A stretch of DNA of 64,000 bases, taken from Gammaproteobacteria bacterium. Its GTDB lineage: Bacteria; Pseudomonadota; Gammaproteobacteria; Pseudomonadales; Pseudohongiellaceae. The notes beneath the pieces were generated by a model, which searched no databases, had not been told where the DNA came from, and worked only from the letters and a program-made list of their open reading frames with translations. The DNA lies in contig JAUXNX010000012.1 in assembly GCA_030682575.1 (NCBI GenBank), forward strand, positions 434,001 through 498,000, read 5' to 3'. Each line of letters starts with the position of its first letter. Within the stretch, counting starts at the first letter, position 1. Both the position numbers and the translations under genes were made by a program. Below, one piece after another: positions 46,877-61,743 of this stretch.

Positions 46877-48907
46877 TTAGCGGTAAGTGGTGTTGGCGAT
46901 ACGGGTTTCCGCCAACAGGACCATGACGACCAGCAAGAGTATCCACCACCAGACGCGCTGTGGCCCCTCACGTTCAGCAATCAGTTCCGCTCTTCTCACC
47001 TGCATGGACTGCATGGGTGTAGTCTCCGGATTCACAACGCGATCATGCAGCGCAGACGGCGCGATCTTCTCCAGCGCAGATTCTGCAGGATCAGCATTGA
47101 CCGCATAGAATTGATCATCTCCATCACCAGCGACACTGATGAAGCCAACGGCAATCGCCCTTAGAGTGCGATTGCCTGCATTCATGGTCACAACATCGCC
47201 AGAGGGGGAAGTGACCGTCAGGGTGGCATCCTCGGCCGCTGCCGAAGACAGATCGATAACATCGCCGATACGATAGGCCCTGTCCTTTCCGGATGCCTGA
47301 GCAAGATAGCGCAGCGATTCATGTATGAATGGGAGATAGAGCCCCTGCAAAGGCAGGTTGTTCCACTCTGTGTCGAGGGATGAGGCAAACAGCATGACTC
47401 TGCCCTGACCTGCAGAGCGCTCCAACAGCGCCGGACTGCTGTTGTCGAACTGCATCAGAACATCCGCTTCTTCCTGCGCGCTGACCGCCCAGTAGCCATC
47501 GAAGCGCACCCCCCAGTCACTACCCAGCGGCAGCAAAACCGGGTGTCGGCGGTCCATATCCGCAATCAGCAGATAATCACCACCACCAAGACGTATGCTC
47601 TGACCAAGCTCGGCAGGACTAATGGCACCAAACTGTTCATTGAACTGAGCTGCATTGACGCGATCCCCAGGTGCCATGAGCAAACTACCACCTTCCTGTA
47701 CGTAGTCTACGAGCGCGCTTGCCTGAGAGGTGCTGAAATCACTGCCCACATTCAACAGTACTACTACATCGTGCTCGGCCAGAGTTGCGGTATCAAGATC
47801 GCGTGGACTGGTAGTGACCACCACAAAGGGCGACTCCACACCACCACCAACGGCAAGAGAAAACCAATGCGCCTCATCCTCGTACCAATTCAGTGACGGC
47901 TCACCGTTGACCACCAGGACGCTGATCCTGGGCATCACATCTACCGTGAAGTAAAAAATGTTGTCGATGGCAAAATCGTCACCACTCACACTGATCTCAC
48001 CTCGGTGTGTACCCTCAGCGTCGAAGACCACGGGCAGGCGTACAACTTCTTCCGATGTGTCACGAAGATTGACCGGCACGCGGATCTGCTCTTGCCCATT
48101 CAGAGTCAGCCGCACCTCGGCCTGTTCAACATGCACACTACCGCTGCTGCGCACACGTGCCAGGATTTCGTACTCATCACGATTCTCAATCAGTTGGTCC
48201 GGTGAGCGCACATCGGTCAGTAGCAGGTTGCGCGAGGCTCCCTGCCCAACGTCAACACTGTTGAAATTCACTCCCGGAGAAAGCATCCAGCCTGAGTCAT
48301 CGTTGCCAAGTCCATTAGCCTGATAATCTGATACCAGGTAAACGGAGCGCTGGTCGTGCCGCGACGACTCCAGCATGTCATTGGCAAGGCGCAGACCGGG
48401 CATATAGCGCGTCACTTCGAAGCCGGGCCCCGCGAGATTGTTGATAAAGATGGCTGCACCTTCCAGGTCACTGCTGAGCTCGCGCACACTGACCGTCCCA
48501 TTGGCGAACGCGATCACTGCCACCTCGTCTCCTGCCCCCATACCAGCAACAATGTCACGCGCAGCTGCTCTCGCCTGCTCGAAGCGATCGCCATACAGCA
48601 TGCTCATCGATACGTCGATAAGGATAACAGCAGACTCTGGTTCTCCATCGACAAAATTGGCAATGGTGCTGTCGAACAATGGCCTGGCAAATGCGAACAC
48701 AATCAGACAGATCACTGCCGCACGCAGCAACAACAGTAACCACTGCTGGATCTGCTGAAAGAAGATCAACTTCTTGGAGGTATTCTTGAGAAAACGCAAT
48801 GTGCTGAATAGCATCTTCGGCGGTTTTTCCCGGCGAATCAGATGAATCGCCACCGGGATGGCGGCAGCCAGCAATCCGAACAGAAACAGAGGGGTCAGGA
48901 AGGCCAT
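46877..48907 (-). CDS. BatA-type vWA membrane protein (676 aa)
   Basis: N-terminal BatA domain (PLFLFGLLAAAIPVAIHLIRREKP, residues 6-30), a second helix near 56-74, then a von Willebrand A domain with the MIDAS motif D98-V-S100-M-S102, a Thr in the second loop and LVSDYQANG; all metal-binding positions are kept. After a beta-rich region (residues 230-330) comes a GATase1-like segment (VVVLLNVGSDFSTSQASALVDYVQEGGSLLMAPGD, about 385-420) and a C-terminal helix (WWWILLLVVMVLLAE). The gene is last in the operon, 3 nt after DUF58. Most of the protein is expected in the periplasm. Confidence 0.9.
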   Translation of the reverse strand: MAFLTPLFLFGLLAAAIPVAIHLIRREKPPKMLFSTLRFLKNTSKKLIFFQQIQQWLLLLLRAAVICLIVFAFARPLFDSTIANFVDGEPESAVILIDVSMSMLYGDRFEQARAAARDIVAGMGAGDEVAVIAFANGTVSVRELSSDLEGAAIFINNLAGPGFEVTRYMPGLRLANDMLESSRHDQRSVYLVSDYQANGLGNDDSGWMLSPGVNFNSVDVGQGASRNLLLTDVRSPDQLIENRDEYEILARVRSSGSVHVEQAEVRLTLNGQEQIRVPVNLRDTSEEVVRLPVVFDAEGTHRGEISVSGDDFAIDNIFYFTVDVMPRISVLVVNGEPSLNWYEDEAHWFSLAVGGGVESPFVVVTTSPRDLDTATLAEHDVVVLLNVGSDFSTSQASALVDYVQEGGSLLMAPGDRVNAAQFNEQFGAISPAELGQSIRLGGGDYLLIADMDRRHPVLLPLGSDWGVRFDGYWAVSAQEEADVLMQFDNSSPALLERSAGQGRVMLFASSLDTEWNNLPLQGLYLPFIHESLRYLAQASGKDRAYRIGDVIDLSSAAAEDATLTVTSPSGDVVTMNAGNRTLRAIAVGFISVAGDGDDQFYAVNADPAESALEKIAPSALHDRVVNPETTPMQSMQVRRAELIAEREGPQRVWWWILLLVVMVLLAETRIANTTYR

Positions 48908-48910
48908 GAC

Positions 48911-49804
48911 TCAGAAGCTCCTTGCCCGACGTGAGATATAGGACGACAACGCCGCATCCAAGGGCTGCGAGGTGTTCAGCAGGCAGTAGTCCACGCCACT
49001 GCCCTGGCACTGCTTCTTGCAGAAATCCAGGAAGCGCTGCAGGTTCTCAAGATAGGAATTGCGGATCGCGGCAGGCGAAGTGATGTAACTCTCGCTGGTC
49101 TCTGCGTCGATGAATTCGGTTGCCTCCTGAAAGCGGAAGTTCAGCTCGGCATCATCCATCACATGGAAGACGATCACATCGTTGCCCATGGAGCGCAGCC
49201 GCTGCAGTGTCTTGATCGTGCTGGCTTCGTCCTCCAGCAGATCGCTGATCAGAATCACGAGCGACTTGCGCGTCAGATTCACGGCCAGGTCCGATAGCGG
49301 GCGCACGATGTTGGTCGTCGCACCGGCCTGGATGTTGGAGAGTACACGCAGGATTCGGATCAGATGCGGCTGTCTGCACAGGGCGGGAATATAGTCCCTC
49401 ACCTTCTCGTCGAACGTGATCAATCCTATTGCATCGCGCTGCCGCATGATGAAATACGCCAGCGCCGATGCGAGCGTACGACCGTAATCGAGCTTGCTCA
49501 TCGCACCGGACGAATAGCCCATTGAGGCACTGGCATCCAGCACGACATAACAACGAACATTGGTCTCATCTTCGTACTGCTTGATGTAGAACTTGTCACT
49601 GCGGGCGTACAGCTTCCAGTCCACATGACGCATGTCATCACCACGGTAGTAGTGACGATAGTCGGTGAACTCCGGGCTGAAACCGCGATGCGGACTCTTG
49701 TGCAGGCCAGAGAGAAAACCCTCGACCACCACGCGGGCTCGCAGTTCGAGATTGTCGAGACTCGCGAGCACCGTGGGGTCGATAAACGTCGTATTTGCCG
49801 CCAT
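48911..49804 (-). CDS. DUF58 (vWA-like) protein (297 aa)
   Basis: Cytoplasmic MoxR partner. The DUF58 signature GFSPEFTDYRHYYRGDDMRHVDWKLYARSDKFYIKQYEDE spans residues 41-80; a vWA fold follows with the MIDAS-like D90-A-S92-A-S94 and LVILISDLLED. MoxR proteins are thought to remodel vWA partners through metal-dependent contacts; the intact MIDAS supports that here. The gene lies between moxR (54-nt gap) and the BatA-type gene (3 nt), in the canonical order. Confidence 0.92.
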   Translation of the reverse strand: MAANTTFIDPTVLASLDNLELRARVVVEGFLSGLHKSPHRGFSPEFTDYRHYYRGDDMRHVDWKLYARSDKFYIKQYEDETNVRCYVVLDASASMGYSSGAMSKLDYGRTLASALAYFIMRQRDAIGLITFDEKVRDYIPALCRQPHLIRILRVLSNIQAGATTNIVRPLSDLAVNLTRKSLVILISDLLEDEASTIKTLQRLRSMGNDVIVFHVMDDAELNFRFQEATEFIDAETSESYITSPAAIRNSYLENLQRFLDFCKKQCQGSGVDYCLLNTSQPLDAALSSYISRRARSF

Positions 49805-49858: not shown

Positions 49859-50902
49859 TTACAGGTCGGCTGTCGGTTCAGGCACCGCCTCAATCAGGCG
49901 ACGTACCACTTCATCGGTGGTAATGCGCTCCGCCTCGGCATGGAAGTTCAGCAGCACGCGATGACGGAGCACCGCCGGTGCGAGAGCACGAATATCCCCG
50001 TAGGACACATTGTAGCGACCTCGCAGCAACGCTCGCACCTTGCCGGCCAGCACCAGATTCTGTGAAGCTCGAATACCTGCGCCCCATGCCACCCAGTCGT
50101 TCACGAATGACGGAGCCATCGGACTTTGTGGACGAGATGCGTGTACCAGACGCACTGCATAACGAATCACCGCCTGGGCTGCAGGTACCTGGCGCGCAAT
50201 GCGCTGGAATTCCAGAATGTCGTCACCACTCAGCGGGTGCGCCACAGTGTTGTCGATGACCTGCGTGGTGTTGCCTACCACCATCACTTCATCATCCTCG
50301 GAGAGATAGCCGAGTTCGATCTTGAACATGAAGCGGTCGAGCTGGGCTTCAGGCAGCGGATAGGTGCCTTCCAGCTCGATCGGGTTCTGGGTGGCCAACA
50401 CGAAGAATGGTCTGGCCATCTTGTGCGTGACGCCTGCGGCAGTCACCTGGCGTTCTTCCATCGCTTCCAGGAGCGATGACTGTGTCTTCGGCGGCGTACG
50501 GTTGATCTCGTCCGCCAGCAAAATATTGGTGAAAATCGGCCCCTTCACAAACTTGAGTTTGCGCTGGCCATCCTTCTCTTCGACGATCTCTGAGCCAACA
50601 ACGTCGGCTGGCATCAGGTCGGGAGTGAACTGGATACGGCTGAACTTGACCTGCAGGATATCGGCGACAGTCTTGATCAGCAGCGTCTTTGCCAGACCGG
50701 GGACGCCCGTCACAAGGCAGTGACCGCCGGCGAACAGCGCGATCAACAGTTCATCGATCACAGCCTCCTGCCCAACGATTACCTTCTTGATCTCGGCAAC
50801 GATCTGGTCACGACCGGTCTGCATTTTTCTGACCAGTGCCAGATCGTCCTGGCTCTCCAGTCCCGCAACAGCTTCCTCTGTAATGTTTTCTAGTTCTGAC
50901 AT
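49859..50902 (-). CDS. MoxR-family AAA+ ATPase (347 aa)
   Basis: Chaperone-like AAA+ ATPase. Walker A GVPGLAKT at 66-73, Walker B LLADEINRTPPKTQ (DEIN 131-134), sensor 1 in FFVLATQNPIELEGTYPLPEAQLDRF, and the lid domain with YGDIRALAPAVLRHR. These are the hallmarks of the MoxR clade. It is the sixth gene of the minus-strand operon and is followed by DUF58 and BatA-type vWA genes, its usual partners. The best-known roles of such sets are assembly, maturation or stress protection; the client here is unknown. Confidence 0.95.
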   Translation of the reverse strand: MSELENITEEAVAGLESQDDLALVRKMQTGRDQIVAEIKKVIVGQEAVIDELLIALFAGGHCLVTGVPGLAKTLLIKTVADILQVKFSRIQFTPDLMPADVVGSEIVEEKDGQRKLKFVKGPIFTNILLADEINRTPPKTQSSLLEAMEERQVTAAGVTHKMARPFFVLATQNPIELEGTYPLPEAQLDRFMFKIELGYLSEDDEVMVVGNTTQVIDNTVAHPLSGDDILEFQRIARQVPAAQAVIRYAVRLVHASRPQSPMAPSFVNDWVAWGAGIRASQNLVLAGKVRALLRGRYNVSYGDIRALAPAVLRHRVLLNFHAEAERITTDEVVRRLIEAVPEPTADL

Positions 50903-50937: not shown

Positions 50938-51837
50938 CTAATGAGTAAATGCGTATATCAAATAATTGATGGCGATCTTGTATGCCTCGTTGCTGTAGCG
51001 TGTCGGATAGGGTTGGTAAAAAGTGTGCTCCCAGCCATCGCCAAGATCTGCATTGTAATTGGCCACCAGCATGACACGCCCGTCGTCATCGAAAATTGCA
51101 TAAACTGCCGGTGGATAGTTGGGGTCATCCAAACTGAAACCACCGTTGAAATCCCAGGTAACAGCGCGACCTGGCACCTGCACCACTTCCTCAACGTCGA
51201 AGAAGACATGGAAGAGTTCGTGTCGCGTGTCAAGTTTCACCAGTTCACGCTCCGGAAAGAGTTTCACCATTTCGTTCTGGAAGTCTTCGAGATGAGCATC
51301 TCCCCAGAAGTCATCCAGTAGCACAAACCCACCGCGGAACATGAACTCCCGCAACACATCAACTTCTTCGGCACTGAAATTAGGACCACTATAAGTCGAA
51401 CCGATCGGCACCCGCTTCATGTTCATGTACAGGAAAGTATGCTCAAAGAGACGGGGGTCTGTGAGGTCAAGCCAGTCATAGCTCTTGCTGTTGGTATCTA
51501 TGTTCGTGTAACGCTGGACGCCACGGAGAAAATTCGACTCTGCATCGGGAAAGTCCGTGTCCCACCAGCCGCCTCTGCCACCAAAACCTCCACCGCCACG
51601 ACGATTGCGACCACCTCCGTAATTGGTGTAACGTCCACGCACCCATGTAAATTCAGCGGCTCTGCCCTCGCCAGATTCATTCATATCGAGCAGGAAGGTC
51701 TGCGGATCGAAATCCAAAGGTACGGCAGAGTTCTGTGCCATAGCGCTAACCGGCAGCAAAAGAGCAAGAATCACCGCCCCAGGAAGCAGGCAATACTCTT
51801 TCACTTTCGTGGCGCTACATCTCATCATCATTTTCAT
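50938..51837 (-). CDS. DUF4159 secreted protein (299 aa)
   Basis: Signal peptide (residues 15-35, ending VSAMAQ), then an extended glycine/arginine-rich patch (GGGRNRRGGGGFGGRGGWW, about 73-92) and the DUF4159 domain: DAESNFLRGVQRYTNI, DLTDPRLFEHTFLYMNM, FSAEEVDVLREFMFRGGFVLLDDFWGD and LVKLDTRHELFHVFFD. The LxxxFxxRGGFxLLDD segment is a GATase1-like fold trait. DUF4159 proteins repeatedly accompany MoxR/DUF58/BatA sets, so the context fits. Gap to moxR is 35 nt and to the upstream peptidase gene 25 nt. Function unknown. Confidence 0.9.
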   Translation of the reverse strand: MKMMMRCSATKVKEYCLLPGAVILALLLPVSAMAQNSAVPLDFDPQTFLLDMNESGEGRAAEFTWVRGRYTNYGGGRNRRGGGGFGGRGGWWDTDFPDAESNFLRGVQRYTNIDTNSKSYDWLDLTDPRLFEHTFLYMNMKRVPIGSTYSGPNFSAEEVDVLREFMFRGGFVLLDDFWGDAHLEDFQNEMVKLFPERELVKLDTRHELFHVFFDVEEVVQVPGRAVTWDFNGGFSLDDPNYPPAVYAIFDDDGRVMLVANYNADLGDGWEHTFYQPYPTRYSNEAYKIAINYLIYAFTH

Positions 51838-51862: not shown

Positions 51863-54616
51863 TCATCGAGCTGCAGGTGCCGCATCAATCGCCTGCAACA
51901 ACACCTGTTGGGCTCTCTGGTAGCTGGGTGCAATCTCCAACGCCGAGAGAATATTTCTTCTCGCCTCGGCTGTCTGACCATTGATCAGATAGGCCTCCGC
52001 GAGATTAGTGCGCGCCTCCACTGGATCAGTTCTATCCAGCGTCACCAACACTTCATATTCACGAACCGCCATCTGCGAATCCTCTATCCGGGTTGCCAAC
52101 TCGGCACCGACTTGATGCGCATCGATGCGATACGGACTGACGGCCAGAGCACGTTGCAGGTAATAGTCCGCCTGCTCCGTATCTCCGGCGGCGAACGCAG
52201 TGCGGGCCAGCAGTACGGCAGAATCGTAGTCGTGTTGATGGTTTTCCATCATGATTCGCAACTGCGCCAACCGTTGCTCTTCGTCACCCTGCTGCTGATA
52301 TATCTGCGACAGCACCAATGGCGGGCTGGGGTAGCCGGAGTAATCCGGCAGAATTTCATGAGCGATCTCCAGATGCACTCTGGCTTCCTCGTATGCCTGC
52401 TCCTTGAACAGCACGATACCGAGTTGCAGATGCGCCTGGAAATCACGCGGCTGGGTTTGCACACGCTGCCGCATGTGCTGTTTCAGCGATGCATTGTTGT
52501 ACAGCTCTGCGAGCACAGCGCTGGAATTCTCTCGCTGGCCATGTCCGTGAGCTGCGCCTTCGTCGGGGGTGTCCTCGTAGTGCACGTAGACGTTGATTTC
52601 TTCAACACGACGATTGACCCAGTCCCGGAAGCCAGCATCAAAGTCTTCGATGGAATTGCCGAAGACGGTCTCGAACATCTCCGTCTCTTCCTTGATGAGA
52701 GCATATTGCTTGATCAGTTCGATCATCTTGTCGAAACCGTGTTCCTTGGCGATGTAATCCACAACCAGGTACGACTGGAAGTAGGCAAACCCCAGATCCT
52801 CATTGCTGTTCGCCCCAGTGAAACCTTCATTGAGGTTGGCGACTGGCAGAAGCTTGTCCTGCTGCGCAGCACGCACCAGTTCCATCCCTTGACGGCGCCC
52901 CCACTCTGAACGGGCCTCATGCTCCTCCCATACGGAAATCCCTTCGGAAAGCCAGCGCGGCATCCGATTATTGGTCATCTGCAATGTGAAGACGTGCACC
53001 AGTTCGTGCCAGAGAATCTCCTGCCAGTTCGCGCTCAGTGTCTCGGGAGAAATCAGTGTCACCACTTTGCCGAAACAGATGCCTACAAGTGGGCCAATAT
53101 CGGGCAATCCCACGGAACGCACAGCAAAATCATCGGTTCTTTCAAACACTTCGATCAGCACTGGCGCTTCAGGCTCGAAGCCGTACTTGGCAGTCAACGT
53201 AGTCCAGCTTTCCTCAAGCAGTGGCGCCATGTAAGGCCACAGTACCTGAGAGTCGCGCTCACTCATACGCACTTCGAAATGCTCCGTGGCATTCGTGACA
53301 TAGGTATCCAGCGTATCAAACACCTTGAGCATGTTCGAAGTCATGACATTGAAGGGATCATTGTCGAACGCCAATTCCAGATGCCGACGCCCCTCGTCTT
53401 CCTCTCCCAGTCTGATCAGGTTCGAACCCAGCAGGGTATGACCCTGCCAGTAGTTGGGATCGATCTCAATGGCGCGGCGTGCATATGAAACTGCTTCGGT
53501 GAAGCGATAGTTGTTGCCGAAGGTGTCGGCAATCTCGCCATAGAAGCGGGCATTGTCAGGACTGAAGGCATTGACGCGGGCTTCGATGGCTGCAAACTCG
53601 GCGTCCCGCTCTTTCAGCGCCGCTTGAGCCGCGAGGATACTGAGAGACTTCAAGGACTCCGGATTCACCTCCAGTGCCCGATCAATAAATTCCCTGGCTT
53701 CGTCCAGGCGATTATTGGCGACGAGCAACGTCGCCATTGTTTCCAGTGCGCTGACATCCCGCGGATTCACGTCGAGAGCGAATAGCAGTGTACGTTCACC
53801 GCCGCTAATCATGGACTGTCCCACAAGGGCGGGTACGAAGCGGCGATTCAACTGCAGAGCGGCATCATATGATTTAGCCGCGTCTACAACATTGAACTTC
53901 TCCATGAACAGGTTGCCCCACAGAACCTGAGCTTCTTGATTGGTTGGATCGACGCGGGTCGCCTCACTGAAAAGGCTATTGGCATCGTGAAAACGATCCA
54001 GCAACCAACTCGCCACTGCCACCATGGCAATTTCTTCGGCCTCGAAGACCAAGCCGGTATCGTAGCGAGCTATGGCCCTATTCAGGGGAGCTATTGCTTC
54101 ACCACGACGCCCTGCAAACTGCAACAGGCTGCCGTACTGTACCAATGAGCGTACGGGTGGATTGCTGTTGCCAGCAATGACTGCGGCAAGAATTTCAAGA
54201 GCTTCGGCAGATTTGCCGGTCATTCGTTTCAGTTCAGCCAGCTGTGTGCTGAGGGCCGCCGAGGATGCATAGTCACCAATCTCAATCTCGTCTTCCAGAA
54301 TTGCAATGGCGGTCTCGTAACTGCCGCTGAGCGCATAGGCGCGGCTGGCGCCGATAAGGCCCGCTTCTTCCTCAAACCCTGTTGCACGTTGAAACAGATC
54401 AACTGCAGCAAGATAGGAGCCGGAATTCAGCAACTCCTTTCCGCGCAGCAGCGGAGACTCTAGCTGCACATCCTGCGCATTGGCAGACACGATTGACAGC
54501 CCGATGCAGGCCAGCAGCAATGAAAGGGAGATTGCGACAAGGGGACGACGGGCGCCGCATGCAGCCGCCAGTTGTTCCCGCGTTTGTTCGTGTCGATGTT
54601 GTTCAAGGAAGTTCAT
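51863..54616 (-). CDS. Secreted TPR protein with peptidase MA-type gluzincin domain (917 aa)
   Basis: Exported or membrane-tethered protein (hydrophobic segment about 26-47) with TPR-type repeats in residues 55-430, then a metallopeptidase of the peptidase-MA type: W536-H537-E538-L-V-H541 gives HEXXH and E558 in PRWLSEGISVWEE gives the third zinc ligand, both intact, and a second block of TPR repeats (about 700-910). The start overlaps the upstream gene's stop by 14 nt. In this operon it could trim an envelope client; that is inference. Peptidase-MA domains with TPRs are known in bacteria but their targets are largely unknown. Confidence 0.88.
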   Translation of the reverse strand: MNFLEQHRHEQTREQLAAACGARRPLVAISLSLLLACIGLSIVSANAQDVQLESPLLRGKELLNSGSYLAAVDLFQRATGFEEEAGLIGASRAYALSGSYETAIAILEDEIEIGDYASSAALSTQLAELKRMTGKSAEALEILAAVIAGNSNPPVRSLVQYGSLLQFAGRRGEAIAPLNRAIARYDTGLVFEAEEIAMVAVASWLLDRFHDANSLFSEATRVDPTNQEAQVLWGNLFMEKFNVVDAAKSYDAALQLNRRFVPALVGQSMISGGERTLLFALDVNPRDVSALETMATLLVANNRLDEAREFIDRALEVNPESLKSLSILAAQAALKERDAEFAAIEARVNAFSPDNARFYGEIADTFGNNYRFTEAVSYARRAIEIDPNYWQGHTLLGSNLIRLGEEDEGRRHLELAFDNDPFNVMTSNMLKVFDTLDTYVTNATEHFEVRMSERDSQVLWPYMAPLLEESWTTLTAKYGFEPEAPVLIEVFERTDDFAVRSVGLPDIGPLVGICFGKVVTLISPETLSANWQEILWHELVHVFTLQMTNNRMPRWLSEGISVWEEHEARSEWGRRQGMELVRAAQQDKLLPVANLNEGFTGANSNEDLGFAYFQSYLVVDYIAKEHGFDKMIELIKQYALIKEETEMFETVFGNSIEDFDAGFRDWVNRRVEEINVYVHYEDTPDEGAAHGHGQRENSSAVLAELYNNASLKQHMRQRVQTQPRDFQAHLQLGIVLFKEQAYEEARVHLEIAHEILPDYSGYPSPPLVLSQIYQQQGDEEQRLAQLRIMMENHQHDYDSAVLLARTAFAAGDTEQADYYLQRALAVSPYRIDAHQVGAELATRIEDSQMAVREYEVLVTLDRTDPVEARTNLAEAYLINGQTAEARRNILSALEIAPSYQRAQQVLLQAIDAAPAAR

Positions 54617-55664
54617 TGTACCGTCCCGTTTTTCTCGCCAGTTCGATTAACAGCGTTTCCATCCTGTTCCAGTAGTCATCCTCAAGATAATTCGTCTTCT
54701 GTCCTCGCAACAGGAATACTGAGCGCTCCAGATCCTGCATCTCAGCCATCAGTTGTCTTGCCTCGGAGGACGTCTTTTGTGCGCCGACGCTGGGCGCATC
54801 CAGATAGGCAATTTCGGCGAGACCGCCATCACCACCGCCAGGTGCCGGGTCGATGCTGAATATGCCATCGCCATTATCATCCAGCACTGCCCGTTCAGTA
54901 GGCAGACGCCCCTGGTCGCGATACCAACCCAGCACGCTGGTGCCGGCATAGGTGAAAACTTCGAGTACAGAGACACGATTGTTCTTGTCACGATCACCGG
55001 CACGACCATCCAGCGCCTCGATCAGATAGCGTGCGAACATCGGGTCATAGCGCTCGGCCTGTGAGCGGGTGGCAGATACAATGACTCTGCCTCTGCCCGA
55101 CAGGGCCGCAGAGAATTCATAGCTGGCACTGGTCGTGTTGATCACGATTATGTCCTGCTGATTGAACTGATCAAGCAGAGCTGCAAATTCAACTCCAGTG
55201 ATATCCGGACCGACAATATTGAATTTCGCATCCAGTTCGGCACCAGAGCCATGACCGATAAGGAACACGGCGACCTGATCGCCAGGTCTTGTTCGACCAC
55301 TCAAAGCGGTGAATGCAGACTCGATATCCTCGCGCCGGGAGCTGCCATCAATGCGTGAACCACTCATCCTGCCAGCGCCACCATCGTCGATAAGCAAGGT
55401 GATGGTGTCTTCACTGTAGCCGTAATCACGAGCAAGCACATCGTGCAGGGAAAGCGACCATTGCCAGAAGCGATCACCAATTTCTTCAGATGCCGCGGCG
55501 CCGGTGATGATGACCGCGTATCTTTCTGCGCCAGGAATATTGCGAAAGAAGACATCCTCGTTGTTGTTCTGTGCGGGCGACTGGGCATACACGCCTGCCG
55601 ATATCAGCAGCGAGAAAGCGAGAGCTGCGCGCAGCATGAGTGTGTTTCTCATTCCTGGAATCAT
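54603..55664 (-). CDS. Secreted caspase-fold (C13/C14-like) protein lacking catalytic cysteine (353 aa)
   Basis: Signal peptide (residues 5-28, MRNTLMLRAALAFSLLISAGVYA-Q), then a caspase/legumain-like fold: AERYAVIITGAA, RFWQWSLSLHDVLARDYGY, TLLIDDGGAG, the His motif VAVFLIGHGSG (H138), then IIVINTTSASYEF where active enzymes read VxDAC-HSG; the cysteine position is T178. The downstream RVIVSATRSQAERYDPMFARYLIEAL and DRDKNNRVSVLEVFTYA match the typical second half. It is therefore predicted inactive as a cysteine protease. The ATG at 55664 overlaps the upstream stop (ATGA) with AAGGGG before it. Confidence 0.8.
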   Translation of the reverse strand: MIPGMRNTLMLRAALAFSLLISAGVYAQSPAQNNNEDVFFRNIPGAERYAVIITGAAASEEIGDRFWQWSLSLHDVLARDYGYSEDTITLLIDDGGAGRMSGSRIDGSSRREDIESAFTALSGRTRPGDQVAVFLIGHGSGAELDAKFNIVGPDITGVEFAALLDQFNQQDIIVINTTSASYEFSAALSGRGRVIVSATRSQAERYDPMFARYLIEALDGRAGDRDKNNRVSVLEVFTYAGTSVLGWYRDQGRLPTERAVLDDNGDGIFSIDPAPGGGDGGLAEIAYLDAPSVGAQKTSSEARQLMAEMQDLERSVFLLRGQKTNYLEDDYWNRMETLLIELARKTGRYNELP

Positions 55665-57970
55665 GACAACCCCTTGAAGCGACGCGCGATCCAGTCGGCA
55701 CATAGCAACAGTATGAGCAGGAACAGCAGGAAGGGTGTATCCCAAAGATCTTCCTGCACTTCTCGTGAGTAGGCATTAGGGGTGTAAGTGATGTCGGTAG
55801 CCAATTGCCCGGTCTGATCGAGATTGTAATAGCGACCACCGCTGGCGGCAGCGATTCTCTCCAGCAGACCTGTATCGCGTCCGGCAGCGGAGTACTCACG
55901 CAGCGACGGAGTGACTACAAAAGCCGTGTTCTTTTCCGTATCGCTGCGATTGCTCTCGCCTGCAGCGCTGGCGACATCCACCAGCATCTTGAATACGCCC
56001 TCGGACTGAGCCTCGAAACTGGCACGGTAGACGCCGTCCTCGTCGATATCCCACTCCATCGCGGTATCTACCGCATTACCTTCCGGATCCTCCATGTGAA
56101 TCCATACTGATGCGCCATTGTCTGGTTTATAGTTGATGTCCCGCACAGTGGCTGTGACATTCACCTGATCACCAACATGGTAGAACTCACGGTCAAAATT
56201 GACACTCACGCGTTCCAGCGCCGAGACAGAGAGCCAGCGCAGAATCTGCCGCCAGACTCGCTCATGGGATTGATCCGCTACCGGCATCATCATCTGCCAA
56301 CGCCAGGTGCTGGCACTGGTGATCGACATACTGCGGCCACTGCCATAACGCTGTGTCGCCATTACGGGCAGGAGCTGATTCTGGTACTGCAGCAGCGGGT
56401 GCTCCATCAACACCGTGGCACCCGGCTTCGCACGACCAGTGACATAGACCCCCTGCAAATCTGGCATCGCACGCCACAGTCGCAGATTCTCGGCATCTTC
56501 ACTGTGCAGTCGCAGCAACTCCGAATACTCTCCCGCGTTGCTCAACTGCGGCCGGAACAACTCACCAGTTGGATGCGACCCACGGGTGATGCCACCCTGC
56601 AGATGCTGAGGCAACAGATTCGAACTGATCAGCGTCACAGGCAGAATGTCGGCAATCACGGTATCAACAAAAAGATCTTCCATCATGCCTGCCACCAGCA
56701 GACCACCGCCGCGCTCGGCGACGAAATCCTGCATCATGGTCAATTGCGTGGGAGTGAAAAAATCCTTGCCTATGTCACCCAGAATGATTGCTTCGTACTG
56801 ATAAAGCTCCTCCACTGTGCTCGGGAAACCCCCGCTAAGCTCCAGCGGTGTCTTGATACCCTGCCGGTAGAACTTGCCCGGCCCGGTTTGCAGATAGGTC
56901 GCCAGACGCAGAGAGGTATCCCCCTCAACAGCGCGGCGAATGAACTTGTATTCGTTACGGGGATGACCATCGACGTAGAGGATGTCCAGCGCCGGACGCT
57001 CGCTGTTATCCACGAGAAAACTGTAGGTATTGTTCTGCAGGACAATCTCGCCGTCCTGCTCCGCCACCTGGAGGCGATAGACGATGGCTTCCTGACGCTC
57101 GGGTGTCAGCTCCAGGGAAACGCGACGGGTGGAATTGTCCGGTCCCAGCACTACGCGCTCTGTAGTGACCACAGTGTCGCCATCCATGATGGAGAGTTCG
57201 ACCTGTCGCCCTTCATAACCCCGATTGCTCAGAGCCACGTCGACATTGAACACGGAGCCTTCCAGTACAGTCTTGGCAGCACTGACATCAACAATACCGA
57301 CGTCCTGGGGAATGTTTTCCTGACCTACTCCGACAGTAAATATGGGAATCTGACGCACCCCAAATCCCTGCGCCCTTGCGACCGGATCGGTACCGTCGTT
57401 GTCAGCTCCATCGCTGAACAGGACGATGCCTCCAAGGGCAAGGCCACTGAGTTGGTCATCCACATACTGCAGAGCCTGATCTATTGCAGATGCGGTGCCG
57501 GCGGCGGTGAGATTGCCCGCCTCAGTCACGCGCTGGGTATTCTTGTCGAAACGGAATGTGCGTACCTGGAACGATTCCCCCAGTGGTTCGAGAATACCAC
57601 TGCCACCGAACAGCAAGTTACTGACGCCAACCGCTCGCGACTGTCCGCCAGGCAAATCTGTAATCGACATACTCTGGGAGTCGTCCACAAGGACGGCAAG
57701 GTAAGTTGCCTGCGGCACAACCTGCTCCGTGGTGACCACAGGGCGCAGCAGACAGACAAACAACAGAATCAGTACCAGGGAGCGCAATGTAATCAGGATG
57801 GCCTTCCAGCCTGGTGTCAGCGCTCGTGTGGTCTTCTGGTAGGAGAACCACACCGCTGCTACCAGCGCCGCCGCGATCAGCAGTGCAAGGAAAGGGTTCA
57901 GTCCATATGCGAAGGAGAATCGTCCGTCCTGAATCGCGTCCAGATAATGTTGGTCAAGAATGAAATTCAT
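55661..57970 (-). CDS. vWA/GATase1-like large membrane protein (769 aa)
   Basis: Two N-terminal helices (about residues 24-43 and 56-76), then a vWA domain with the MIDAS D96-D-S98-Q-S100 and LFSDGADNDGTDP, a beta-sandwich region with tandem Ig-like folds (about 240-330), a GATase1-like domain (ALDILYVDGHPRNEYKFIRRA and IILGDIGKDFFTPTQLTMMQDFVAERGGGLLVAGM, about 335-430), more Ig-like strands, and a C-terminal helix (DTPFLLFLLILLLCADWIARRF). This resembles large vWA proteins in MoxR gene clusters of other bacteria. It starts 2 nt after the DUF4175 stop and overlaps the pseudo-caspase gene. Confidence 0.85.
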   Translation of the reverse strand: MNFILDQHYLDAIQDGRFSFAYGLNPFLALLIAAALVAAVWFSYQKTTRALTPGWKAILITLRSLVLILLFVCLLRPVVTTEQVVPQATYLAVLVDDSQSMSITDLPGGQSRAVGVSNLLFGGSGILEPLGESFQVRTFRFDKNTQRVTEAGNLTAAGTASAIDQALQYVDDQLSGLALGGIVLFSDGADNDGTDPVARAQGFGVRQIPIFTVGVGQENIPQDVGIVDVSAAKTVLEGSVFNVDVALSNRGYEGRQVELSIMDGDTVVTTERVVLGPDNSTRRVSLELTPERQEAIVYRLQVAEQDGEIVLQNNTYSFLVDNSERPALDILYVDGHPRNEYKFIRRAVEGDTSLRLATYLQTGPGKFYRQGIKTPLELSGGFPSTVEELYQYEAIILGDIGKDFFTPTQLTMMQDFVAERGGGLLVAGMMEDLFVDTVIADILPVTLISSNLLPQHLQGGITRGSHPTGELFRPQLSNAGEYSELLRLHSEDAENLRLWRAMPDLQGVYVTGRAKPGATVLMEHPLLQYQNQLLPVMATQRYGSGRSMSITSASTWRWQMMMPVADQSHERVWRQILRWLSVSALERVSVNFDREFYHVGDQVNVTATVRDINYKPDNGASVWIHMEDPEGNAVDTAMEWDIDEDGVYRASFEAQSEGVFKMLVDVASAAGESNRSDTEKNTAFVVTPSLREYSAAGRDTGLLERIAAASGGRYYNLDQTGQLATDITYTPNAYSREVQEDLWDTPFLLFLLILLLCADWIARRFKGLS

Positions 57971-57972
57971 CT

Positions 57973-60900
57973 CTACGGAGCCGCTGCATTCGCCCCGCCG
58001 GTTTCGGACAGCACGCGATAATACTCCTCTACGAGGCGTCGGTATTGATCGGGTACGTCTTCGTCAGCCGAGGCGTAGAGTTTCTGGTTGACACGGTCCA
58101 TCTCGGCCTGGGCACGCAGCTCTGCCTCAAGTTCCATGATGGGTTGCATCAGCGCGGCAAACAGCTCCGGCTGACTGAGGAAATCTTCAATGCTCTGGCG
58201 GGTAATTTCGCTTCTGATCGAACGTGCATTGCCCAGCGCATTGGAGCCACCGGTGGGAGCGGGACGACCATCCCCACCGAAGCCGCCATTCTGCCCTTGC
58301 GCCTGACCAGCAGACTGATTGCCTGATTGATTGCCAGCCTGCTGGTTCACGCCGGAGCCACCTTGTCCGGTCTGGCCCTGCTGCCCACCTTGTTGACCTT
58401 GACCACCCTGACCTTGCTGACCCCCTTGCTGACCTTGTTGTCCAGCCTGTTGCTGTGCATTGGCGCCGCGCTGCGCGGCAGTACGCTCTGCCATCTGCTG
58501 TTGCTGCAACTGAGTAGCCAGATCTTGTGCGAGTTGCTGAGAACGCTCCAACTGTTGACGCATCTGTGCAATGGACGCATCGGATTGATTGCCCTGATTC
58601 AATGCCAGAGTCTGGCGCTCCAGCTCCTGCATCTGCTGCATCAACTCTGCCGCATTACGGGCAGCTTGCTGGATAGGGTCAGAAGACGCTGGGGTGTTGG
58701 CGGAATTCATCGCCTGCAATGCCGCATTCATGGCAGCAAGTGAATCGCCAATTTCCTGCTCGATATCCACGGCAAGATTCACCATGCCGTTGCCGAGTAC
58801 ACGGCTGGCAGTATTCATTTCTTCACGGATTGGCCTGATTGCCCTGCTGGCCTGCTGTGCCTGGGAGAGCAGACGTTGATCCTCGTTCTCACCACGGGCG
58901 ATGATCGCACGCACCATCTTCTCGATTTCCTCAAGTTCACGACGCTGTGCCTGCTGGGCTGCAATCAGCTCCTGAAGCTCCGCGTTGCTGCGGGCATCCT
59001 GGCGGGTCTGGCCCAAGCCTTGCTCACGATTGGCTGTCCGCAAATCCTGCTGCAACTGACGCTGTTGCTGCAGTAATTGCTCGCCGCGCTGGGCTGCATT
59101 CTGAGCCAACTGATTCACGGAGGTGTTCTGTTCTGTGGCCATTTGCCGCTGCTGCTCGCGCAGACTCTCAAGGGCACGCTGGCTGCGAGCTGCTGCCTGG
59201 GCCGGAGAATCCGCCTGAGCGGCATCCTGCATCTGCTGAGCGGCGCGTTCCAACTGGCTTTGCCCGCCTGACGCCTGACCACCGCCAGCGCTTGCCTGCT
59301 GGGACTGGCCCTGAGCAGAACCCTGTGCCGAACCAGGTTGCGGCCCCTGCTGAGACTGACTCTGCTGGCCTTGCTGACCCTGTTGGGATTGCTGTCCCTG
59401 CTGCCCCTGCTGCTGACGCCGGGAAAGTTGCTGCGCCAGTTGTGCCACTTCCTGACTCAATTGTTCCTGCTCGCGCTGAAGACGTTCCAGTTCGCGGCGA
59501 CGCTGCTCCTCGTTCATTGCCTCCATGCGGCGGGCGAGATCACGCTGAGCGCGAGTGAGGCCTTCCTGACGCCGGGCCAGTTCTTCGAGCTTGTTGGCTT
59601 CCTGAGTCTGCTGACCCCCGCCGCCACCGGCTGCGCTCTGCGGAGTCTCGTAACGATTCTCCAACTGCCCCATTTCCATTTCGAACAATTCACGCAGATC
59701 CTCACGCTCCTGCTGCGCACCACCGCCACCTCCGCCACCCCCGGCCTGCTGGGTGCTGACATTGGTGCGATTGATGTCGGCCTCGGCCTTGAGAATGAAC
59801 TGCAGAGCAACCTGCTCAGGCTTGAGGGCGCTGGTAATCTGTTCCTTGTCGAGTTCGGCTATCGCCAGTGTCATCTGCTCGATGGCCTGCTGCAGGTTCA
59901 GCACGGCACTGTCGTAACTGTCATCTGAAAAATTGAGGCGCTCCGACAGACGGTCGATGGACTGTCTGGCGCGCGTCGTCGCTTCCCGCTGGGATTCGGC
60001 AATGATCTGCACATCGGTGGAAAGCGTGGCAGGATTGGCGTTGAGTTGCTGGTTACGCAGCTTCCATGTCGCGGCGATGATATCTTTCTGGAGACTGACC
60101 AGTGCGCTGCTCTCTCCGCCGCCCTGGCCGCCACCGCCACCGCCACCACCTCCGCCACCGGCGCGACGAAACTCCTGGTCGGTAGGAATCACCTGCAGGA
60201 AGTAGATATCGGACACGACTGCCACTGGACCGGAAAGTCCGTTGTTGTCGGCCAATGTCAGGTAGTAGCTCACGAAATCCCCGGGCGCCACGGCAAGGTC
60301 TTCCAGGTAGATCAGTTCATTGCCATTGATGCTGCGGGTCTGCTCCGGGGGCAAGAAGTCAACAGATACCTCATCGGCACCTACCACCGCATAGTGCAGA
60401 TTGAATTGACTCAGACCGTAGTCGTCGCTGGCTTCCACCGCCAACACCACCTCTTCAAGAGGCATCACGTCCTGATCCCGTCCTGGGCTGCGCAGCACCA
60501 ACTCCGGAGGCAGATCAGGAATGGAGCGAATGTAGTAATCCAGAGGATCCTTGCTGACCAGATCGTCGAAGTCGGTAGCAACTACGCGGTAGACGCCATC
60601 GCCTGCCACGGTGAAGCTGGCCCGCCCGGTGCTGCCATCGATGGTCAGTGGGATACTTTCGTAACCAGCCTGGCCTTCCTGGAACTCGATCACTGCAGTC
60701 TCGACATTCTTGTTGAATGTCACCTTCAATTCGACCTGAGTGCCCTCGGGCACCAGCATGTCGCCGGTGTCTTCTTCCTCATTGTTCGCGATACCGGTGT
60801 ATTGAGGATACTGATAGGCCAGGTCAATCTGCTCTACCTTTGGCAAGTCGTAGAGGCTGATGCGGAACTGTTCGGAACGCTGCTCGCCGTTCTGCACGAA

Positions 60901-61743
60901 ATTGACGTAGTACACCAGGTTTTCCTGGACCGAAGGCATGAAGTAACTGTACGAGGCACTGTCACTGCCGCTGCCATCCTGGCGCATCGTCAGATCCTGC
61001 CAGTTGACGTTGTCGGTCTGGATGCGCAGTTGAATATCACTCGGCGTCGCATTGGTCACCCGTGCCACGATGGTAGCGGCACTGCCACGCTGCATGGAAA
61101 TATCGCCTGGCTCGACGCTGATCTGGATCTCCAATGGCTCTTCAACGATTGCCACCGGTACAACCGGATCGGGAGTGAAGGGCCAGAGCAATTTGCCTGC
61201 GGCATTGAGCAGAGCATCAGAGAGCAGCAGGGCACTCATGGCAACAACAACCACAGCCAGTGCGGAAGTCGCGGAGTACCAGGAGTTCTTTGATGACACG
61301 ACTTGATCGACGCGTTGCTGTTGCTCCTGCACATGCGCTTCGGCATCTGCCCACAACTGTCGGATGAATTGCTGCGACACGCCCTTGCGGCCCGTTTCAA
61401 GATCATCCGAAGTGAATTCGAGGGAAGTCAGCAGACGTTGTTCGAGATCGGGGATTCTGCCATCGACGTACTGGGCGAGGAACTGGTCGTCCTGCTGCAC
61501 ACGTTGCAGTCGCACAACGACATAACCGATGGCAGCGGCGATTCCCGCGATCAGAACAAGGAAGAGTGCAATGTTGCCTGCGCGGGGAGGCTCCAGCCAG
61601 GCATCAAGGATACTCAGACCAAGCGCAAGTGCTGTAACAGCGATAATGGCCAGACTGACCTGTTGCAGGACATACAGTCGACTGCGTCGACGACGTATGT
61701 TCTTGAGAGTGTGACGCAGATTTTCGAGAGTTGGAGATGACAT
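57973..61743 (-). CDS. DUF4175-type giant membrane protein, Gln/Gly-rich (1256 aa)
   Basis: N-terminal helices at about residues 25-45, 58-78 and 158-180, then Ig-like strands (about 200-540) that should lie in the periplasm, followed by a very long alpha-helical, glutamine-rich region (about 560-1150) with several poly-Gly linkers (e.g. near 537-550 and 668-678) and Q/G/S repeats, and a short conserved tail (RSIRSEITRQSIEDFLSQPELFAALMQPIMELEAELRAQ). The layout fits DUF4175 proteins that lead MoxR operons. Low-complexity stretches make long false ORFs on the plus strand. First gene of the operon. Confidence 0.82.
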   Translation of the reverse strand: MSSPTLENLRHTLKNIRRRRSRLYVLQQVSLAIIAVTALALGLSILDAWLEPPRAGNIALFLVLIAGIAAAIGYVVVRLQRVQQDDQFLAQYVDGRIPDLEQRLLTSLEFTSDDLETGRKGVSQQFIRQLWADAEAHVQEQQQRVDQVVSSKNSWYSATSALAVVVVAMSALLLSDALLNAAGKLLWPFTPDPVVPVAIVEEPLEIQISVEPGDISMQRGSAATIVARVTNATPSDIQLRIQTDNVNWQDLTMRQDGSGSDSASYSYFMPSVQENLVYYVNFVQNGEQRSEQFRISLYDLPKVEQIDLAYQYPQYTGIANNEEEDTGDMLVPEGTQVELKVTFNKNVETAVIEFQEGQAGYESIPLTIDGSTGRASFTVAGDGVYRVVATDFDDLVSKDPLDYYIRSIPDLPPELVLRSPGRDQDVMPLEEVVLAVEASDDYGLSQFNLHYAVVGADEVSVDFLPPEQTRSINGNELIYLEDLAVAPGDFVSYYLTLADNNGLSGPVAVVSDIYFLQVIPTDQEFRRAGGGGGGGGGGGQGGGESSALVSLQKDIIAATWKLRNQQLNANPATLSTDVQIIAESQREATTRARQSIDRLSERLNFSDDSYDSAVLNLQQAIEQMTLAIAELDKEQITSALKPEQVALQFILKAEADINRTNVSTQQAGGGGGGGGAQQEREDLRELFEMEMGQLENRYETPQSAAGGGGGQQTQEANKLEELARRQEGLTRAQRDLARRMEAMNEEQRRRELERLQREQEQLSQEVAQLAQQLSRRQQQGQQGQQSQQGQQGQQSQSQQGPQPGSAQGSAQGQSQQASAGGGQASGGQSQLERAAQQMQDAAQADSPAQAAARSQRALESLREQQRQMATEQNTSVNQLAQNAAQRGEQLLQQQRQLQQDLRTANREQGLGQTRQDARSNAELQELIAAQQAQRRELEEIEKMVRAIIARGENEDQRLLSQAQQASRAIRPIREEMNTASRVLGNGMVNLAVDIEQEIGDSLAAMNAALQAMNSANTPASSDPIQQAARNAAELMQQMQELERQTLALNQGNQSDASIAQMRQQLERSQQLAQDLATQLQQQQMAERTAAQRGANAQQQAGQQGQQGGQQGQGGQGQQGGQQGQTGQGGSGVNQQAGNQSGNQSAGQAQGQNGGFGGDGRPAPTGGSNALGNARSIRSEITRQSIEDFLSQPELFAALMQPIMELEAELRAQAEMDRVNQKLYASADEDVPDQYRRLVEEYYRVLSETGGANAAAP

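What the first reader, a model, noticed from the sequence alone, without database searches (positions are those of the whole stretch)
54603..55664. Caspase-fold protein with the catalytic cysteine replaced by threonine
H138 in the GHG motif is kept, but the segment equivalent to VxDAC-HSG reads VINTTSASYE, so T178 stands where the nucleophile should be. The rest of the fold is well preserved and the gene is translationally coupled to its neighbour. It is therefore more likely a pseudo-enzyme that binds peptide or partners than a decaying gene.
Basis: partly seen in the sequence, partly recalled or inferred. Interest (0 to 1): 0.8.

Follow-up and report, generated by a model that had tools for sequence, protein, structure and literature searches.

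The report
Serine-bearing legumain-like protein, envelope operon
A probably secreted bacterial protein with the fold of the legumain and caspase proteases carries a conserved serine, not the threonine first reported, where such enzymes have their catalytic cysteine, and it sits in a fixed MoxR/Bat-type gene cluster, so it is either a long-kept dead protease used for binding or an untested serine version of that fold.

The parts
54603..55664 (-). Gene for the legumain/caspase-fold protein with Ser in place of the catalytic Cys (353 aa, no Cys)
   Evidence: model; fold matches; family
55584..55664 (-). Probable signal peptide, residues 1-27 (likely cut VYA/QS)
   Evidence: inference from the sequence; no signal-peptide tool was run
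55251..55253 (-). H138 of GHG, the clan CD catalytic His; His in 139 of 139 family rows
55203..55226 (-). KFNIVGPD, residues 147-154; K147, F148, N149, G152 and D154 nearly invariant
55131..55133 (-).
55128..55130 (-). S179, the residue at the position of the catalytic Cys; Ser in 135 of 138 family rows
54960..54995 (-). EF-hand-like loop DRDKNNRVSVLE, residues 224-235; pattern kept in 138 of 138 family rows
55661..57970 (-). Upstream neighbour: VWA/GATase1-like membrane protein; 4-nt overlap with the gene
   Evidence: (GATase1_like); the VWA part is my reading, no VWA model was listed for it
51863..54616 (-). Downstream neighbour: TPR protein with Peptidase_MA_2 domain and intact HExxH; 14-nt overlap
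57973..61743 (-). DUF4175-like membrane protein, first of the run examined
   Evidence: 26.8 bits, just under the Pfam cut-off of 27.3
50938..51837 (-). DUF4159 protein
49859..50902 (-). MoxR-type AAA+ ATPase (AAA_3)
48911..49804 (-). DUF58 protein
46877..48907 (-). BatA/VWA membrane protein

Best explanation
The gene encodes an exported, legumain-like (clan CD, C13-like) protein in which the catalytic Cys is replaced by Ser (S179), while the catalytic His (H138), the fold and an EF-hand-like loop are kept. Shown: sequence, register, conservation, predicted fold, operon place, purifying selection. Inferred: it is a pseudopeptidase with little or no proteolysis. It uses the old substrate groove, with H138 and S179 as hydrogen-bonding groups and probably Ca2+ as a structural ion, to hold a peptide tail or partner. 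It works as a periplasmic subunit of a complex with the VWA/GATase-like, BatA, DUF4175 and TPR-metallopeptidase proteins, remodelled by MoxR/DUF58, in envelope maintenance.
For: Register on S179. Conservation and selection. Fold. Operon: (VWA/GATase-like gene upstream in 16 of 16 chosen loci; TPR-metallopeptidase gene downstream in 15 of 16) and co-occurrence in the same 4 of 274 class genomes. EF-hand-like loop in 138 of 138. Non-catalytic use is suggested by one member with Asn at 179 (L023) and two near-identical ones with Thr (L035, L036) that keep the rest, and by an HExxH peptidase encoded next door (14 of 14 loci looked at). Precedents: papain-like SERA5 with Ser for Cys, no detectable proteolysis (PMC4671257, abstract seen); about 70% of effector-position caspase domains in MoxR-vWA conflict systems inactive (PMC7159879, passages seen).
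Against: H138 is invariant and Ser179 is kept through both codon families (116 AGY, 19 TCN), more than a plain binding role needs. No partner, ligand, Ca2+ binding or location was tested. Model coordinates were not returned, so the H138-S179 distance was not measured. The tree does not recover the family as one clade (Ser rows need 6 changes), although one clade is not rejected (p 0.328). Two weak relatives support the other register.
Confidence: 0.58

Rival explanations
1. It is an active serine hydrolase or transpeptidase on the caspase/legumain fold: S179 is the nucleophile and H138 the base, so the Cys was exchanged for Ser without loss of catalysis, perhaps because a thiol is at risk in the periplasm.
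For: H138 in 139 of 139 and Ser179 in 135 of 138 rows, Ser encoded by both AGY and TCN codons; S-x-S-G in 27 of 138 rows, like C-x-S-G; likely exported protein without any Cys.
Against: One member has Asn and two have Thr at 179; SERA5 with Ser for Cys showed no proteolysis (PMC4671257, abstract); the clan CD passages read here define the clan by a His/Cys dyad (PMC4357240, PMC12445089). Whether the oxyanion hole is intact was not measured.
Confidence: 0.22
2. T178 replaces the catalytic Cys, and the protein is a pseudo-enzyme or a Thr-nucleophile enzyme.
For: Two weak relatives, L083 and L088, align their Cys to column 178.
Against: Three profile alignments put Cys on 179; position 178 holds T, S, G, I, V or A; S-x-S-G anchors S179.
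Confidence: 0.07
3. The active site is a structural remnant; the conserved surface that matters lies elsewhere (EF-hand-like loop, KFN/GPD strand, conserved C-terminal helices), and the protein is a scaffold.
For: Many invariant columns lie outside the active site (D154, T199, D224, E235); a conserved helical C-terminal part follows the fold.
Against: It does not explain the invariance of H138 in members down to 25% identity.
Confidence: 0.13

Closest known systems
Legumain / Peptidase C13 (and PIG-K of the GPI transamidase)
   Different: Catalytic Cys is Ser; about 11-15% identity to the legumain and GPI transamidase rows; no PF01650 match for the window protein itself; EF-hand-like loop; MoxR/Bat operon
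Metacaspases / bacterial orthocaspases (C14)
   Same: Arabidopsis metacaspase-4 is the best sequence match in PDB (E 0.0008 for the C139A chain, 0.00098 for the wild type, whose Cys lies on S179); three cysteine-bearing bacterial relatives share the EF-hand-like loop (L077, L087, L220)
   Different: No Cys; no Peptidase_C14 match at E up to 1
Bacterial pseudo-orthocaspases (YS type, PMC6426788)
   Same: Ser in place of the catalytic Cys in a bacterial caspase-like protein that is conserved in its group
   Different: In the YS type His is also lost (Tyr), and 90% of pseudo-orthocaspases are alphaproteobacterial or cyanobacterial; here His is invariant and the fold is nearer C13. That paper also counts single substitutions; whether it includes His-Ser forms I did not see
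Trypanosoma brucei metacaspase MCA4 (recalled, from no call)
   Same: Ser for the catalytic Cys in a clan CD protein regarded as a pseudopeptidase
   Different: Eukaryotic C14 protein; no operon
SERA5 of Plasmodium (papain-like, PMC4671257)
   Same: Ser in place of the catalytic Cys; non-enzymatic but indispensable
   Different: Papain-like, another clan; eukaryotic parasite
MoxR-DUF58-VWA envelope/aerotolerance operons (Bat; Rhizobium RL3499-RL3502)
   Same: MoxR, DUF58, BatA/VWA and related membrane proteins
   Different: Adds a legumain-like protein and a TPR-metallopeptidase as far as I recall; the Rhizobium paper is not held and is known here only through a citing passage (PMC3893208)
MoxR-vWA ternary conflict systems (PMC7159879)
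   Same: MoxR and vWA proteins with often inactive caspase domains
   Different: No PADLOC hit at E up to 0.001 for eight operon proteins; here the gene is present in all 92 good genomes of a family

Membership tests
Clan CD cysteine peptidases, family C13 | caspase/legumain fold | tested here: met
Clan CD cysteine peptidases, family C13 | catalytic His preceded by Gly | tested here: met
   G137-H138; His in 139 of 139 rows
Clan CD cysteine peptidases, family C13 | catalytic Cys | tested here: not met
   S179 at that position; no Cys in the protein
Clan CD cysteine peptidases, family C13 | match to Pfam PF01650 | tested here: inconclusive
   none at E up to 1 for the window protein; 8 of 24 members match, best 4.5e-7
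Clan CD cysteine peptidases, family C13 | peptidase activity | not testable with these tools
   needs an assay
Pseudo-orthocaspases (YS type) | Tyr for His and Ser for Cys | tested here: not met
   His kept in 139 of 139 rows, Ser present
Pseudo-orthocaspases (YS type) | p20 (Peptidase_C14) domain | tested here: inconclusive
   no PF00656 match at E up to 1 for the protein; none over cut-off in the genome, controls rang in 2 of 14
MoxR-vWA ternary conflict systems | MoxR and vWA couple with a third component (VMAP, iSTAND, FtsH or beta-propeller) | tested here: inconclusive
   MoxR and vWA present, MoxR also matches bpMoxR below AAA_3; no PADLOC hit; the third components were not searched for by model
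Bat/RL3499-type MoxR envelope operon | MoxR, DUF58 and BatA/VWA genes in a row | tested here: met
Bat/RL3499-type MoxR envelope operon | role in envelope integrity or stress tolerance | not testable with these tools
   needs gene removal and phenotyping

The most novel reading that the evidence does not exclude
A natural serine hydrolase or peptide transferase on the caspase/legumain fold: an H138-S179 dyad, fixed in a MoxR/Bat-type envelope operon of Gammaproteobacteria, would be a serine-based branch of clan CD.
Probability: 0.2. Interest if true: 0.82.

Novelty: new variant of a known kind. Interest (0 to 1): 0.5.

Why it matters
A clan CD family that keeps its catalytic His in every member seen but has Ser for Cys at great divergence is a clean natural case for asking whether this fold can work with serine, or what a dead protease is kept for. 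It also adds a defined, probably periplasmic component, present in all 92 good genomes of one family, to MoxR/Bat-type operons, whose function is still vague.

Tried and rejected
Decay or pseudogene: rejected. No match row holds a stop; dN/dS was 0.016-0.203 in 142 pairs. One genome (G900) has the gene split over two frames; whether that is an assembly error was not examined.

Another catalytic Cys: rejected. The window protein has none; in the family a Cys occurs at column 109 in 43 and at column 185 in 2 of 140 rows; their places in space were not checked.

An active cysteine cousin in the same genome as partner: not found. One PF00656 match under the cut-off (E 0.31, one stop inside) and no PF01650 match at E up to 1, with controls ringing in 2 of 14 genomes each; one match to the protein itself at E up to 10.

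Scans that led nowhere: NCBIfam (E up to 1) and PADLOC (E up to 0.001) gave no hit for this protein. phmmer with the single protein gave one chance hit. The viral fold library gave giant-virus caspases and metacaspases, best E 3.2e-9.

Tree: the Ser rows did not form one side of a branch (6 changes), with many long branches; holding the 81 family rows together is not rejected (p 0.328). Number and direction of Cys-Ser changes stay open. Before building I dropped rows with under 80 filled columns or a gap at 179, then rows 88% or more identical (107 of 207 kept), and masked columns 176-182.

No coordinates were returned, so active-site distances were not measured. The second prediction job was not used.

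Literature: searches listed no paper that I recognised as describing this family or a Ser-nucleophile clan CD enzyme; this covers only the held open-licence library and those terms.
Full report
Gene and observation. The finding's coordinates hold an intact frame on the minus strand; the plus strand in that frame is broken by stops. The protein is 353 aa, starts with a likely signal peptide (cut after residue 27, my reading of the sequence), and has no cysteine. GHG is at 137-139, so H138 is right. The segment is V174 I175 N176 T177 T178 S179 A180 S181 Y182 E183. The start overlaps the upstream gene by 4 nt and the end overlaps the downstream gene by 14 nt.

Which residue stands for the cysteine. 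I looked at the register in four ways. (a) hhalign of the family alignment A1 (24 rows, 23 used) with ten cysteine-bearing C13-like relatives A4: probability 99.0, E 4e-18; reading the pairs, S179 falls on the Cys of SACYSG. (b) hhalign with A5, five Thiomargarita/Parabeggiatoa-type and L076 domains, four of them with a Cys: probability 98.9, E 2.3e-17; S179 falls on the Cys of IDACYSG. (c) HMMER profile against PDB sequences: wild-type Arabidopsis metacaspase-4, E 0.00098; S179 falls on the Cys of SDSCHSG. (d) Distant members read S-x-S-G at 179-182 in 27 of 138 rows, as C-x-S-G in the active relatives; for instance VGTSSSG in L070 beside IGTCYSG in L076. Against this, two weak matches, L083 and L088, align their Cys at column 178, and three f25 members (L048-L050) align with a gap beside the motif. 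I judge S179 to be the right residue.

Conservation. One search gave 141 non-redundant rows from 182 hits. I left out one cysteine-bearing domain of L038, a three-domain protein that nearly fills its contig, so 140 remain, one member counting as two fragments. H138 is His in 139 of 139 rows with a letter. Position 179 is S135, T2, N1 of 138. Position 178 is T109, S23, G3, I2, V1, A1 of 139. By column entropy H138 is among the 16 fully invariant columns, S179 ranks 26th and T178 94th of 313. Ser179 is coded by AGY in 116 and TCN in 19 rows: the serine has been kept across a codon gap that single synonymous changes cannot cross; S181 shows the same (126 and 7). Pairwise dN/dS (142 pairs, 80-97% identical, dS under 1.5) has median 0.081, range 0.016-0.203; the window against L002 gives 0.057. 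The gene is under purifying selection. The exceptions matter: L023 has Asn and L035/L036 have Thr at 179 with the rest kept.

Distribution. In the window's family 131 of 137 genomes match, and 92 of 92 that are at least 90% complete and at most 5% contaminated; the six misses are all under 90% complete. In the order sample 29 of 244 genomes match, 12 strongly (nine of the own family, three of family f25) and 17 weakly. In the class sample 12 of 274 match, four strongly. In the phylum sample 21 of 299 match, only the window's own genome strongly. The weak matches whose motif is covered are mostly cysteine-bearing caspase-like proteins. Named relatives L031-L034 are Gammaproteobacteria MAGs; L035 (labelled Desulfofustis) and L036 (Arenicella) carry the same motif.

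EF-hand-like loop. Residues 224-235, DRDKNNRVSVLE, fit D-x-[DNS]-x-[NDSG]-x-x-[hydrophobic]-x-x-x-E; 138 of 138 family rows with the region fit. Of 28 cysteine-bearing relative rows printed, three (L077, L087, L220) fit at the same place; many of the others end before the region, and several that cover it do not fit. The loop may therefore be older than the loss of the Cys. Ca2+ binding is inference.

Surroundings. The genes examined are all on the minus strand: DUF4175-like, VWA/GATase-like, this gene, TPR with Peptidase_MA_2, DUF4159, MoxR, DUF58, BatA. I compared 16 loci that I chose from strongly matching genomes: the VWA/GATase-like gene is just upstream in 16, the TPR-metallopeptidase gene just downstream in 15 (not in the 3.3 kb held beyond the gene in L035), and MoxR and DUF58 follow in 14 (L095 ends first; not seen in L035). 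In the class sample the VWA/GATase-like protein (E up to 1e-30) and the strong form of this protein occur in the same 4 of 274 genomes. The TPR protein keeps HExxH in 14 of 14 loci looked at, the window included. No PADLOC model hits eight operon proteins at E up to 0.001. The genome shows no other clear caspase-like gene: PF00656 one match under cut-off, PF01650 none.

How it most likely works. Bat/MoxR operons are tied to envelope integrity and stress in other bacteria (R. leguminosarum RL3499, in a passage of PMC3893208; Bat proteins have been proposed for oxidative defence, start of the abstract of PMC3557215 in the listing, which also says that no specific function had been demonstrated). 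I think this protein is an exported pseudopeptidase that uses the legumain groove to bind a peptide or partner, next to a working metallopeptidase, in a complex assembled with help from MoxR/DUF58. Inactive caspase domains are common in MoxR-vWA conflict systems, about 70% of those in effector position (PMC7159879, passages seen). A papain-like protein with Ser for Cys, SERA5, showed no proteolysis but is indispensable (PMC4671257, abstract seen). The main rival is a true serine dyad. The invariant His and the two codon families of S179 favour it; the Asn and Thr exceptions and the precedents speak against it.

Relation to known kinds. The protein has the fold and His of family C13 but fails its defining Cys, so it is not filed as a C13 peptidase but as a C13-like variant. 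It differs from the YS pseudo-orthocaspases, which lost the His (PMC6426788, passages and section 12 seen); that paper also counts single substitutions, and whether His-Ser forms are among them I did not see. The searches named in Tried and rejected listed no paper that I recognised as describing this family.

Verdict. The corrected finding, a Ser-for-Cys legumain-like family with an invariant His fixed in a MoxR/Bat-type operon, is a new variant of a known kind.

Noticed in passing
L037 and L038 (Candidatus Parabeggiatoa HSG14, Candidatus Thiomargarita nelsonii): Single frames of about 1190-1225 aa with three tandem caspase-like domains each, some with intact DACYSG or DGCHSG and some with the Cys lost (EASYSG, DTAYAG).
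   Followed up: partly
51863-54616: TPR protein with a Peptidase_MA_2 domain keeps HExxH and a downstream SEG in 14 of 14 loci looked at; a probable periplasmic metallopeptidase in the same operon.
   Followed up: partly
L212 (genome G900): The family gene is split over two reading frames in this genome; frameshift or assembly error not examined.
   Followed up: no
L035 and L036: MAG contigs labelled Desulfofustis and Arenicella carry nearly identical forms of this protein with Thr at position 179, which suggests a misbinned contig; in L035 a DUF4159-like frame follows on the opposite strand.
   Followed up: no
family column 109: A lone Cys at column 109 in 43 of 140 family rows, absent from the window protein.
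   Followed up: no
54960-54995: EF-hand-like loop kept in 138 of 138 family rows and shared with three cysteine-bearing bacterial caspase-like proteins.
   Followed up: partly
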